From Halichondria panicea (lineage: Eukaryota; Porifera; Demospongiae; Suberitida; Halichondriidae), in NCBI RefSeq assembly GCF_963675165.1, contig NC_087383.1, positions 969,399 to 1,033,398 on the forward strand: 64,000 nucleotides of DNA, in the 5' to 3' direction. A program made the translations under genes and the position numbers. Every line of letters starts with the position of its first letter. Positions within the stretch are counted from its first letter, which is position 1. Positions 35,063-63,107 of this stretch are shown one piece after another. The notes below the pieces were generated by a model. The model was not told the origin of the DNA, searched no databases, and saw only the letters and a program-made list of their open reading frames with translations.

Positions 35063-36103
35063 AGCCACGTAATTTCCAATTTCAGTTTCCAATTCAGTGT
35101 AGAATGCTTGGACTGAGCACTATAGCAGGCTGCAACTAAATATATAGGTGCAGCTGCAGGCTGCTTAAAACAGGTTTAAAACAGGGCTGGTAGGTAACTA
35201 ATAATAACTTTGAGGGATTCCTTACAAGTACATTTCCTCTCATAACCTTTTTGCTGTGGTGGTATGCACTTCACATATGGAGGATTGTGTGCAGTCTCTT
35301 ATAGCCTCAATCCCCGAGGCCGTTCCAAGGGCCTGGGATCGAGGCTGAGTCTCTTATTGTTATTAGATCAAAGGCTCCCTTTACTGTGATGGTAATTAGA
35401 AGGCAATTTGATACATGTAAGACTAACCATTCTCTTAATGGACAGAGCCCAAACAGGAATGACTAACCATGCAGCCCCTTTTATTGCCATTTCTAAGAAG
35501 CCACATAATGAAACTTGACAATTTTGTGAATGTAAATTATTGTTTTGAATCCAAATTAACTCACTCAGATATAATAATGGGCACAGAACAATTTTACTGA
35601 TAAATTATACAAAACACACAAAATCATAACACTACAGTTTGACATTTCACACTACCGTCCGCACCACAAGAGTACAATCTATACCCCCAGGCAATATTCC
35701 CAGGTCGGTTACGCCTCCTTCTGTCTGTCGGAAGAGTCTGGGCATGGTGTGGAGGCCGGGGTACGAGGCGAGCTCCTCAAATGAATTGCAGTCTAGAACC
35801 TGCGAAGGATGTAAAGGACTTGTGAAACTTACATTCAGAATTAAGCTAGGCATATACTGTACTTGTACTGAATTTGCACAGGTGACACTTATAAATGTGT
35901 ATGGTAAAGAGGTATTATACATGTGCACGTATTATCTGTAAAATTATGGAGGGTGGAAATGCATTATCAAAGCTGTGGTAAACAGGTTTCATAGTAATTC
36001 CATAGGGACAAGATGAAAACAGATTGTGGACAATGGTTGTGGACAATGGTATTAAGGTTTCACTATGCATGCATATTTCATTAACCACAACATCTAGTCA
36101 AAC

Positions 36104-36323
36104 TACCGTATTACTAGAATGTTTTGCGAGCATCAAACAATTGCGAACTTTGCGACGGTTGATCAATTCGCAACAATTAAATCCGCAAAACCTAAATTAT
36201 TACTAGTAAATACACATGATATTTTCCAGAACGCAATAGTTAGATCGCAAAAGGTCAAATTTTCTGCTGATTTAGCTAATTTGCGAAGGTTTTTCACCAG
36301 CAAAATATTCTAGTAATACGGTA
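36104..36323. mobile_element. TACCGTATTACTAGAAT-family MITE
   Basis: It starts TACCGTATTACTAGAAT and ends with its exact reverse complement ATTCTAGTAATACGGTA (17-bp TIRs). It is 220 bp, with internal TTTTGCGA/TCGCAA motifs repeated in both orientations, typical of a MITE. A 64-codon plus frame inside is fortuitous. Confidence 0.85.
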
Positions 36324-36533
36324 GCTTGTAAACACATTTCCAACACGTGCAATTAGCTCTAATTGCAAACAGTGCATGCTAAATACAGTGTGTGGAGTAT
36401 ATTTGATGTAACAGCTAGTACCCACACCCACACACCAAACACTAAACAGCTACCAAATGCATTTAATATCGGACAATCCTTATAACCTCTCAAAGTTAGC
36501 TACCAAAACAAGCCTACCCACACCCACCCCCCT

Positions 36534-36696
36534 CACACACACACACACACACACACACACACACACACACACACACACACACACACACACACACACACAC
36601 ACACACACACACACACACACACACACACACACACACACACACACACACACACACACACACACACACACACACACACACACACACACACACACACAC
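36534..36696 (+). repeat. (CA)n microsatellite, about 163 bp
   Basis: Uninterrupted CA dinucleotides lying in the DMXL relic of module A, directly next to the remnant WD exon. Frames on both strands (His-Thr and Cys-Val runs) are artefacts of the repeat. Confidence 0.97.
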
Positions 36697-37377
36697 TTTA
36701 ATGTCCTATCAGCAGGGCCAGTGGCATTAAAGCCATCGATATCGTCCACGACGATCCTGTTGACAGCTGAGCTATGAACTATCAGACTCTGTAGCAGACA
36801 CATTTGCCTCAGGTCGAATATTATATGGCATAATTATAATGTAGGGTTCACAACACTTGACTTTGTTGGCAAAAGTGTGTCTCACAGGAATGCTCTTTAT
36901 TATATTATTATCGTACATTTTTGGGTACAGTGAAACAAAATTAACCTATATATCAGTAGCACAAAAATGAACCAATCCAATAAAGCGAAATCCTTTGTTT
37001 CCATCTGGAGTGAATCGGACGCTGGCCCCAGAGCCCGGGTAAATCTGGATGGAGACTGGCCGAGGGTTACCAAACTCCCACATCACCATGGAGCCATCCA
37101 TATACAGCCAGTTAGATCTGAGCAGGTGTGGGGGAATATAATGTTATTGTTGAGGGATAAGGTATGATTATGGTTATGTTGCTAAGAGACAAAGCTAGGA
37201 GGCGTATTTCAATGAATTTAGTTAAAGACACACCCAGTTTTGTGTAAGACACAGTTAGCAGGTAAACATTAAATAGTGTACAATGCCTGTGTTTGTGGTG
37301 TAAACTGTACAGTAACATTGCTAATACAACTGATAACATATTCATAACTATACTGGTTTCTACAGCTGGCTGGAGAA

Positions 37378-60876: not shown

Positions 60877-60947
60877 TATAATAATTATTATACTAGAATT
60901 ATATATAGCTACCAACATTTTGTTTCTACATGCAGCTGGCTTGAGAA

Positions 60948-61967
60948 ATGGCTAAATTCAGTGGAGGTTACGATTACGATTTTGTAGATCAGCCCCCCAA
61001 ATCTTTGGAGTGTTCAATATGCCTTTTGACGCCACGAGACTCCATGGTCATCAGTTGCTGTGGTAACCACTTTTGTGACCCTTGCATTGGTCGAATCAAG
61101 AGTAACAGAAAGCCTTGTCCTCTCTGCAATTCTCCAGACTTCACGACACTTCTCCACAAGGGTGTGGCCCGAGAGGTGAATGCCCTGAGGGTGTATTGTC
61201 CCAAGAAGGCCCAGAGCTGTAACTGGCAAGGGGAGCTAGGACAAGTGGATCACCACCTCAACCCCACGGCTAACTCTAGGGGATGTGGCTTTGTCATGAT
61301 TGAGTGCAAGTATAAGTGCAGGGAAAAGTTCGAGCGACGAGCGATTGCTTTTCATGAGGCTGACAATTGTGCTAATCGACCAATGGAAGTACAGGTGGCT
61401 TTTCTTGCTAGAAAATTAGAAATGCTAGCTACCGAGAATAGAGAAATTAAGAATAAAGTGACAGCACTTGAGGCTGAAAATACGTTATTGAAACAGCAAA
61501 TGGAAGCTAGACCGCTACCACCAGTACCTCCGTTCTACTTTACCGTGTACAACTATCGGCAATACAAGAAAGACAACTGTACAATAATGAGCCCACCATT
61601 TTATTCTCATCCTAAAGGCTACAAAATGAGCTTACAAATATACCCGAACGGATCCAACACTGGAACGAATACTCACATGTCAGTGTATGCTTTCATAATG
61701 AGAGGGGAATTTGATGATACGCTTCAGTGGCCATTCACAGGAAGAGTCACCGTAGATATATACAGCTACAAGTTAAAGAAATGGACTCAAATACAAGTAT
61801 TCAATTTCAAGGAATACCCTATTGAGAGGGGATATGACTGTGTCATAAGCGATGGTAGTGGGTATCATCTATTTTTTCCACAAGACCAAGTTGAAACAGA
61901 GTACATGTTCAAGAATGGAAGTTATACATTTGTTTGCTTTCGAGTAAATCGTGTGGAATTAGTTTGA
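60948..61967 (+). CDS. RING-TRAF-MATH protein, copy G (intact)
   Basis: 339 aa, partner of broken copy D. RING CSIC, CCGNHFCDPC, CPLC; zinc-finger region SCNWQGEL (C and F copies have GCDWQGEL), then GCGFVMIECKYKCREKFERR; a coiled coil with ATENREIKNKVTALEAEN; MATH domain SPPFYSHPKGYKMSLQIYPN to CFRVNRVELV. A TTTCTACATGCAG acceptor precedes the ATG, as in the other copies. Its upstream region is the ~800-bp interspersed repeat, so its promoter probably differs from those of A and C/F. Confidence 0.87.
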   Translation: MAKFSGGYDYDFVDQPPKSLECSICLLTPRDSMVISCCGNHFCDPCIGRIKSNRKPCPLCNSPDFTTLLHKGVAREVNALRVYCPKKAQSCNWQGELGQVDHHLNPTANSRGCGFVMIECKYKCREKFERRAIAFHEADNCANRPMEVQVAFLARKLEMLATENREIKNKVTALEAENTLLKQQMEARPLPPVPPFYFTVYNYRQYKKDNCTIMSPPFYSHPKGYKMSLQIYPNGSNTGTNTHMSVYAFIMRGEFDDTLQWPFTGRVTVDIYSYKLKKWTQIQVFNFKEYPIERGYDCVISDGSGYHLFFPQDQVETEYMFKNGSYTFVCFRVNRVELV

Positions 61968-62120
61968 ATGTGTATATTTAATTATATATGAACTGCCATA
62001 AAACAATTGTTACTCACAATAATCCGGCGTGTGGGGTGGGTATTATTTACAAAAAGTTTTACGTTCGTAGTACGATTACTCGGGTAAGTGTGGTGCGCAT
62101 GAGCACTAACAATGGATACC

Positions 62121-62760
62121 AGGCCCTTTTTTGACTTAGCGTTCAATTAGAGAACAAACAGCCTGGGAACGAGGCTATACAATGTAAAACTTATCAGTCG
62201 CCGAATTTATGACCACAATATTATACAAGCTGCTTGATCATCTATTAGATATACATAAGGTGTTTGTTTGCATGTGAGGTACAGGTATTGGTACGTATTG
62301 CCTAAGGGCAAGTGGTATAAAGCCGGGTCATGTGATCACACGGACTAACCCTCATACTTGAGCTTTGGCCAGTCTGTGAGTGTGTGATGGATGTGGCCGA
62401 GGGATAGGTGAAGGTGGACAGGGAGAGACTACCCGAGAGGAAGGCGGAGCTTTGTGGCTTCCTCATACGATTGGACTGGATTATCACAAAGTCCTTCTGA
62501 AACGGCATACTCAGACTGTGTGTGTGTGTGGGGGGGGTCATGTGATGTGAAGTCAAATAAAGACATTTCACGAGAAGAGCCGATGGAGGTAATAATTATG
62601 ATTTCTCATTAAAAAATCTTCTAAACGAAGTTGCTCAGTAATTCGCCATAACATATTTTCTTTGGCTAAGTAACTCGGAAGGCTGTCTTGAAGGAAGCCA
62701 GTCCAGCATTACCAAGGAATCACTCTTATTGTGTAATCACTTCGATCATGTATTCCCTAA
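62121..62760. pseudogene. Module relics after copy G
   Basis: Foldback (about 62121-62174), MPFQKDFVIIQSN-type segment (about 62510-62395, minus) and short oxidase exon 1 relic (about 62755-62675), matching 49371-50010. Confidence 0.6.
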
Positions 62761-63107
62761 GGCCACTCCAAGTGACACTCTGGTTTCTGGTCCTGAAGTT
62801 TTTCTAATCGGGCGGCTTTTCTCATCATGTCATTATAAATTTCACCTTATGAATCTCATTATTTTGCAAATGAATATCATTATCACACTATTTTGTGGCA
62901 CATGGACCATTCTGCGCATGCGTAGTAGATAGAAATCCAATAATGAGATAGAAATCCAAGAATAAAATCTGATGCGGGCGGTGGACCAGAAACCAGAGTA
63001 TCACTTGGAGTGGCCTAATGGGAATTCAGCTAGACTCTGCGGCTGATACATGAGACTAGCTTAGAAAGGGCGGCTGATTTATGAGACACAAACCATCAGA
63101 TTCACTG

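What the first reader, a model, noticed from the sequence alone, without database searches (positions are those of the whole stretch)
35640..63107. Composite tandem array: oxidase-exon relic + DMXL C-terminus + RING-TRAF-MATH gene
The repeated unit carries pieces of three unrelated genes in fixed order and orientation. Only the TRAF part stays open in several copies, while DMXL and oxidase parts decay. The unit therefore seems to have formed when a TRAF gene was flanked by the ends of DMXL and of oxidase 2, and then multiplied. This is a clear case of immune-type gene expansion dragging gene fragments along.
Basis: partly seen in the sequence, partly recalled or inferred. Interest (0 to 1): 0.75.

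Follow-up and report, generated by a model that had tools for sequence, protein, structure and literature searches.

The report
Intron-nested TRAF gene copied into array
In an animal genome, an immune-type (TRAF) gene sitting inside an intron of a housekeeping gene (DMXL) was copied about fifteen times in a row together with the tail of DMXL and the start of its neighbour, which explains why the copies drag the same gene fragments along in the same order.

Summary
The repeat is real. The window shows part of it: 7 of 15 RING-TRAF-MATH copies over about 67 kb. The full locus explains the unit. Beyond the window lies the DMXL body, minus strand. The last TRAF copy (T15) lies antisense inside a DMXL intron, and the DMXL tail reads through in frame around it. 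One unit is one contiguous piece: oxidase exon 1, DMXL terminal exons d-c2-c1-b-a, nested TRAF, DMXL exons z2 and z. The eight junctions aligned share one oxidase break, so one founding duplication is the simplest reading. Later a three-gene block of 12.6-13.2 kb was amplified to four copies, the last truncated.

That the DMXL parts decay is only half right. Two units keep frame-intact DMXL exons (U2 all of a-d, U14 b-d). They differ from the intact gene by 0.6-6%, against 16-48% for introns, 16-25% for oxidase relics and about 15% for TRAF. Gene conversion, indicated for exon d, plus some constraint fits best. Immune function is untested. An ordinary kind of event, in an unusually legible case.

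The parts
30408..35241 (-). Oxidase 2 (OX2), L-amino-acid-oxidase-like gene with open first and last coding ORFs (middle exons not checked); source of the oxidase relics
   Evidence: Pfam Amino_oxidase 110.9 bits on the C-terminal ORF; best PDB relatives are L-amino-acid oxidases; exon 1 aligns with the relics
35624..35799 (-). U1 DMXL terminal exon d, 2-base insertion (frame broken)
   Evidence: 94% to intact copy
36684..36890 (-). U1 DMXL exons c2 (5' truncated) and c1 (broken); a long CA repeat appears to have grown from the c2 donor
36985..37117 (-). U1 DMXL exon a (frame broken, donor lost)
37378..38412 (+). T1 RING-TRAF-MATH gene, open frame
38450..38766 (-). U1 DMXL exons z2 and z (z truncated)
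38981..39354 (-). Oxidase exon-1 relic; founder junction to the DMXL y-z intron at its low end
39719..41243 (-). U2 DMXL exons d, c2, c1, b, a: frames and splice sites intact
41494..42528 (+). T2 TRAF pseudogene (2 stops inside the match)
43033..43171 (-). U3 DMXL exon a, decayed
43515..44504 (+). T3 TRAF gene, open frame
44537..45385 (-). U3 DMXL z2 and truncated z, then oxidase relic
45787..46478 (-). U4 split exon d and frameshifted exon a
47381..47580 (.). 200-N assembly gap inside block A; block C holds about 1121 bases at this place
48192..49213 (+). T4 TRAF pseudogene (frameshift)
49590..49994 (-). U4 exon z (open, 3 bases shorter) and short oxidase relic
40649..50368 (+). Block A (T2-T3-T4) of the higher-order repeat
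   Evidence: matched pieces 95.7-98.7% to blocks B, C, D
52641..63108 (+). Block B (T5-T6-T7) of the higher-order repeat; blocks C and D follow outside the window
53533..54109 (-). U5 DMXL exons b and a, frames and splice sites intact; no c1, c2 or d copy found beside them
54646..55700 (+). T5 TRAF pseudogene
56665..57654 (+). T6 TRAF gene, open frame
57687..59881 (-). U6 z2, z, oxidase relic; U7 split d and frameshifted a
60948..61967 (+). T7 TRAF gene, open frame
62344..62744 (-). U7 exon z (donor lost) and short oxidase relic

Best explanation
A single-exon RING-TRAF-MATH gene lies antisense inside an intron near the 3' end of DMXL (between exons z2 and a), and an L-amino-acid-oxidase-like gene lies just downstream of DMXL. 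Shown: the nesting, in frame, at the far end of the array. Inferred: an unequal exchange between oxidase exon 1 and the DMXL y-z intron duplicated the stretch in between (about 4.6 kb by coordinates), giving the unit oxidase exon 1 - DMXL d c2 c1 b a - TRAF - z2 z. Repeated exchange between units, deletion inside some of them, and later amplification of a three-unit block made today's array of 15 TRAF copies; units also reached two other scaffolds. The DMXL copy next to the gene body (U15) supplies the working C-terminus; the other units' DMXL exons are carried along, but have been kept similar by exon-sized gene conversion together with some past or present constraint in U2 and U14 (this last step about even odds). 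About half of the TRAF copies remain open and diverge mainly in the coiled-coil/MATH half.
For: DMXL body with Rav1p_C (129.8 and 94.1 bits, cut-off 27) at 108134-113687, minus strand. U15 exons z-z2-a-b-c1-c2-d join in one open frame with AG/GT at every splice site, and TRAF T15 (103317-104348) lies in the z2-a intron (103108-104401). A six-frame genome search with the exon-c peptide gives 6 matches, 4 in the array and 2 overlapping ones on C16, so in this assembly the tail comes from the array. The oxidase break is shared by the eight junction copies aligned: U1, U3, U4, U7, U10, U12, U13, U14. T15 lies outside all other array copies in the TRAF tree at 91/90. Block amplification, pieces 95.7-99.1% alike. 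Dispersed units: C14 (a, b, c1, part of c2, TRAF), C16 (c2, d, near-complete oxidase, TRAF fragment). Exons stand out: U15-U14 exons b-d 15/611 mismatches against 50/308 oxidase relic, 145/755 in three introns, 151/1009 TRAF; U15-U2 exons a-d 23/742 against 93/372, 88/408, 152/987. Run of 12 agreeing variable sites U15-U14 over exon d, 101339-101183, permutation p = 2e-4, the smallest value that 5000 shuffles allow.
Against: No RNA reads, so splicing of DMXL through U15 and expression of any TRAF are inferred. T15's place in the tree is not starred, its root rests on two long outgroup branches that the tool flagged, and the C14 pseudogene also branches early. At the junctions the roughly 100 bases next to the oxidase break resemble the U15 y-z intron only weakly; likeness is clear only close to exon z. 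The U14-U2 exon/intron contrast is much weaker (22/611 against 38/459, p = 0.001). The U15-U2 pair shows no conversion-type run (p = 0.39), and the run over exon d could also arise if U2 alone changed there, since the changes that could be assigned in d are U2's. In c2 five sites unite U2 and U14 against U15 and the C16 copy, a shared history and not fresh conversion from U15. Non-coding sequence just 3' of d is also fairly similar (7/92 and 13/139).
Confidence: 0.85

Rival explanations
1. The retained DMXL exon sets (U2 a-d, U14 b-d) are working alternative C-termini: DMXL transcripts splice over the TRAF genes into one of several tandem terminal-exon cassettes.
For: U2 a-d: 16 synonymous to 7 nonsynonymous differences from U15; U14 b-d: 12 to 3. 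If half of the silent changes fell on a neutral relic branch, 25 and 19 nonsynonymous changes would be expected (P 2e-5 and 8e-6). All splice sites and frames of U2 a-d are kept.
Against: U14 exon a is frameshifted with donor lost (S 5, N 5; left out of the count); U2 lies about 63 kb from exon z2 of the gene; U14 exon c2 has 3 nonsynonymous changes and U2 exon d has 3; if only a quarter of the silent changes fell on the relic branch the excess is weak (P 0.07 for U2, 0.015 for U14). Exon conversion would give a similar pattern.
Confidence: 0.12
2. The DMXL pieces are purely neutral relics; high similarity just means the duplications are young.
For: 29 of 50 exon copies outside U15 are broken, with near-neutral change in exon a of U3 (S 2, N 9) and U4 (S 4, N 10). 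Between U14 and U2 the c1-c2 and c2-d introns are only 6.1% and 3.4% apart, like the exons.
Against: Against U15, introns, oxidase relics and TRAF of the same units are 5-8 times more diverged than the exons (Fisher p from 1e-13 to 7e-28).
Confidence: 0.15
3. The copies are an assembly artefact (uncollapsed haplotypes or misjoined repeats).
For: A 200-N gap lies inside block A at 47381-47580, and blocks are only about 1-4% apart, which could be a haplotype distance.
Against: From the gap to the end of the fetched region there is no N, and that stretch holds T4-T15 with blocks B, C and D; subfamilies differ by 7-24% depending on the half of the gene; blocks A and C are colinear through the gap; broken frames differ between units.
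Confidence: 0.07
4. A composite transposon or rolling-circle element captured three gene fragments and multiplied.
For: Dispersed units exist on C14 and C16, and dispersed repeats are found near units.
Against: All fragments are contiguous in the DMXL/oxidase neighbourhood, so no capture is needed; the 15 array copies are tandem and in one orientation. Element ends were not looked for.
Confidence: 0.04

Closest known systems
Tandem segmental duplication with partial gene fragments and higher-order repeats (recalled, general)
   Same: Direct tandem units, shared breakpoint, truncated neighbour genes, later amplification of a multi-unit block
   Different: The duplicated driver gene is nested antisense inside one of the fragmented genes, so every unit began with another gene's terminal exons around it
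Nested genes inside host introns (recalled, general; one search lists four papers, none read)
   Same: Single-exon gene in an intron, opposite strand to the host
   Different: Here nesting led to multiplication of the host's 3' end with the guest
TRAF family (RING, zinc fingers, MATH)
   Same: RING and TRAF/meprin MATH over the Pfam cut-off
   Different: TRAF-type zinc finger scores under the cut-off; single exon; one of a very large family in this genome
DMXL / rabconnectin-3 alpha, Rav1 family
   Same: Rav1p_C domain in the body, WD40 C-terminus
   Different: Terminal exons duplicated many times

Membership tests
TRAF (TNF receptor-associated factor) family | RING finger at the N-terminus | tested here: met
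   PF13923 27.3 and 27.2 bits, cut-off 27, T1 and T15
TRAF (TNF receptor-associated factor) family | TRAF-type zinc fingers | tested here: inconclusive
   PF02176 21.3 and 22.6 bits, under the cut-off of 27
TRAF (TNF receptor-associated factor) family | C-terminal TRAF/MATH domain | tested here: met
   PF21355 71.1 and 88.8 bits, cut-off 27.4
TRAF (TNF receptor-associated factor) family | Binds TNF-receptor-type receptors, E3 ligase activity | not testable with these tools
   needs biochemistry
DMXL / Rav1 family | Rav1p_C domain | tested here: met
   PF12234 129.8 and 94.1 bits, cut-off 27, ORFs at 108134-110275 and 110760-113687
DMXL / Rav1 family | C-terminal WD40 propeller continuous with the body | tested here: met
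   U15 exons z-d joined in one frame, PF00400 WD40 58.9 bits; the joins upstream of z, y to z included, were only read by eye
L-amino-acid oxidase family | Flavin amine oxidoreductase domain, LAAO relatives | tested here: met
   PF01593 110.9 bits; PDB relatives are L-amino-acid oxidases, best E 4e-15
Tandem segmental duplication | Direct copies sharing one junction | tested here: met
   Same oxidase break in the eight junction copies aligned
Retrogene (nested) | Derived from an intron-bearing parent by retroposition | tested here: inconclusive
   Many other genomic TRAF copies also show long single open frames, so being intronless is not diagnostic; no parent was identified

The most novel reading that the evidence does not exclude
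DMXL has acquired several tandem, selectable C-terminal exon cassettes interleaved with antisense TRAF genes, so that the array gives both an expanded TRAF repertoire and alternative V-ATPase-assembly-factor tails, and transcription of one may regulate the other.
Probability: 0.1. Interest if true: 0.7.

Novelty: new variant of a known kind. Interest (0 to 1): 0.42.

Why it matters
It shows, in one locus, how a guest gene in an intron can multiply and take the host's coding tail with it, and offers an internal clock: within one unit, oxidase relic, introns, guest gene and host exons share an age, yet against the intact copy the exons are 5-8 times less diverged. That makes exon-limited gene conversion and constraint on duplicated terminal exons directly measurable.

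Tried and rejected
Identifying DMXL by the Protein Data Bank gave no hit for the 976-residue ORF and only generic WD40 proteins among the rows shown for the tail; identification rests on Pfam Rav1p_C. The comparison with the human DMXL tail, used to place the exon order, is from recall and no call.

A look for silicatein-type cathepsins as a sponge marker (12 loci fetched of 77 matches, 8 of the 12 looked at) was inconclusive. The genome looks to me like that of an early-branching invertebrate, probably a sponge; untested.

Counting DMXL bodies in the genome with PF12234 did not complete, so 'one DMXL gene' rests on the exon-c search only.

Literature: four searches listed no title on a DMXL-nested TRAF array. 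Only listings were seen, apart from passages of PMC6321704, which did not bear on it. The library is described as holding no bioRxiv preprints and lacking most subscription-journal papers, so absence from print is not shown.

Rejected: chance assembly of three unrelated genes; disfavoured: purely neutral DMXL relics, transposon capture (see rivals). Left out of counts: exon a of U14 (broken), the exon-d copies in two pieces of four units, the a-b intron in the intron sums, U5, U6, U8, U9 and U11 in the junction alignment, and gapped columns.
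Full report
Setting. I extended the window to C7:1113300 and use window coordinates throughout; U and T numbers count units and TRAF copies from left to right.

What is there. Self-comparison confirms the composite repeat. A search with the T1 protein gives 136 matches (690 candidates, 117 scored): 15 copies form one array from 37.4k to 104.3k, some of them listed in several pieces; a broken copy lies on C14, two relatives with open frames at 50% identity lie on C6 and C7, and the rest are more distant. The MATH family search reports 150 matches, the number it scored of 317 candidates, so a lower bound. 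Seven of 15 array copies have an open frame: T1, T3, T6, T7, T9, T12, T15. The window holds T1-T7, 4 of 7 open.

The key lies outside the window. On the minus strand at about 106-117k is the body of DMXL, with Rav1p_C in two long ORFs. Its tail continues leftwards: exon y near 105.1k, z 104758-104923, z2 104402-104462, a 102977-103107, b 102407-102573, c1 102113-102165, c2 101806-102023, d from 101316 to a stop at 101145-101143. Joined, z to d form one open frame of 322 residues with AG and GT at every border; the joins upstream of z I read only by eye. T15, on the plus strand, occupies 103317-104348, inside the 1.3-kb intron between z2 and a. TRAF is thus nested antisense in DMXL. To the left of the array stands oxidase 2, with the domain and relatives of L-amino-acid oxidases.

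Origin of the unit. In the order oxidase - DMXL tail - nested TRAF - DMXL body, a unit is simply the stretch from oxidase exon 1 to the y-z intron of DMXL. The eight junction copies that I aligned break off in oxidase exon 1 at the same place, just after the codons for DSLPRYL in oxidase 2, and lead on to exon z. A short run at the break matches neither parent clearly, and the next hundred or so bases resemble the U15 y-z intron only weakly; likeness is clear close to exon z. One founding duplication is the simplest reading. The TRAF tree agrees: T15 lies outside the others (91/90, under the starred level; rooted on two long outgroup branches, which the tool flagged), the three sets of block copies are each starred, and each pairs with one outside copy: T4-type with T14 (97/95), T2-type with T13 (94/93), T3-type with T1 (80/92). 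A block T2-T3-T4 was later amplified to four copies at intervals of 12.6-13.2 kb (A-D, D without its third gene); matched pieces are 95.7-99.1% alike. Units also reached C14 (a, b, c1, part of c2 and a broken TRAF) and C16 (c2, d, a near-complete oxidase whose reading departs from the others near its end, and a TRAF fragment). Oxidase 1 in the window has its own DMXL exon-d remnant at 29480-29616.

State of the DMXL copies. Of 50 aligned exon copies outside U15, 21 keep frame and both splice sites: z 1 of 10, z2 5 of 11, a 4 of 15, b 5 of 5, c1 2 of 3, c2 2 of 3, d 2 of 3 (for d, acceptor and open frame). Exon a of U13 has indels that sum to +3 and is counted as broken. U2 has a complete set a-d; U14 has b-d but a broken a. 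Four more exon-d copies are in two pieces and are not in this count.

Exons against their surroundings. Without gaps, U15-U14 differ by 15/611 in exons b-d, 145/755 in three introns, 50/308 in the oxidase relic and 151/1009 in TRAF; U15-U2 differ by 23/742 in exons a-d, 88/408, 93/372 and 152/987. The a-b intron is so diverged from U15 (about 48%) that I left it out of the intron sums. Non-coding sequence just 3' of d is intermediate (7/92 and 13/139). U14 and U2 differ by 22/611 in exons b-d and 38/459 in the same three introns, a much weaker contrast. Since all parts of a unit should be the same age, neutral relic exons should not stand out against U15 like this. Two causes can act. Conversion: U15 and U14 are nearly identical over exon d (1/173) and carry there a run of 12 agreeing variable sites (101339-101183, p = 2e-4, the floor of 5000 shuffles; 292 variable of 1473 ungapped columns). 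Against this, the assignable changes in d are U2's, so U2's own change could make the run; U15-U2 show no such run (p = 0.39); and the U14-U2 run (p = 0.004) lies in the a-b intron, where U15 aligns poorly, so I give it no weight. In c2 five sites unite U2 and U14 against U15 and the C16 copy, which speaks for shared history there. Constraint: differences from U15 are mostly silent, 16 to 7 in U2 and 12 to 3 in U14, fewer amino-acid changes than a neutral relic should have if half of the silent changes are its own (P 2e-5 and 8e-6), but only weakly so if a quarter are (P 0.07 and 0.015). Assigning changes to branches with the C14 and C16 copies gave few usable sites and mixed results: in exon b no amino-acid difference exists among U2, U14 and U15, but U14 has three in c2 and U2 three in d. 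I therefore commit to conversion plus partial or past constraint, at about even odds for that step, and keep working alternative tails as a minority reading.

TRAF copies. Between open subfamilies dN/dS is 0.36-0.56 (15 pairs), so they are constrained but loosely; within the recent T3/T6/T9/T12 group counts are too small to use. Among seven representatives (T1, T2, T3, T7, T13, T14, T15, pseudogenes included) the first 450 alignment columns, RING and zinc-finger part, are 89-93% alike, the rest, coiled coil and MATH, 76-88%. With domain borders that I set, dN is higher in MATH than in RING in 15 of 15 between-subfamily pairs and dS in 11 of 15, so a higher rate or exchange with other copies is as good an explanation as diversifying selection.

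Limits. One haplotype, a 200-N gap in block A (block C suggests about 1.1 kb is missing, but whole blocks could be lost or gained there), no transcripts, no relatives, and a taxon that I could not name. The words immune and adaptor describe the domain family, not a tested function.

Noticed in passing
window 18555-18754 and 47381-47580: Two assembly gaps of exactly 200 N, the second inside the array.
   Followed up: partly
window 29480-29616: DMXL exon-d remnant upstream of oxidase 1, so the oxidase/DMXL-tail pair was itself duplicated.
   Followed up: partly
window 36534-36696: Perfect CA repeat of about 81 units that appears to have grown from the splice donor of the U1 exon c2 copy.
   Followed up: no
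window 33762-34210, 51139-51936, 60111-60885; also 84754-85216 and 124061-124498 beyond the window: Related dispersed repeats in both orientations near unit borders, possibly transposons that helped rearrangements.
   Followed up: no
G000 C14:3233006-3235147 and C16:3682653-3687291: Dispersed copies of the composite unit; the C16 one carries a near-complete oxidase whose reading departs near its end.
   Followed up: partly
G000 C3:7.27-7.42 Mb, C12:6.2-6.6 Mb, C14:2.3-2.5 Mb: Large clusters of TRAF/MATH-domain genes elsewhere in this genome.
   Followed up: no
region 125494-143901 beyond the window (C7:1094892 onward): At least four tandem copies of another large open gene, one cut by the end of the fetched region and one in two frames; unidentified.
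   Followed up: no
TRAF copies, e.g. window 37378-38412: RING spacing around SCCGNHYCEAC departs from the common C-x-H-x2-C pattern (recalled); the C6 relative has Q in place of H.
   Followed up: no
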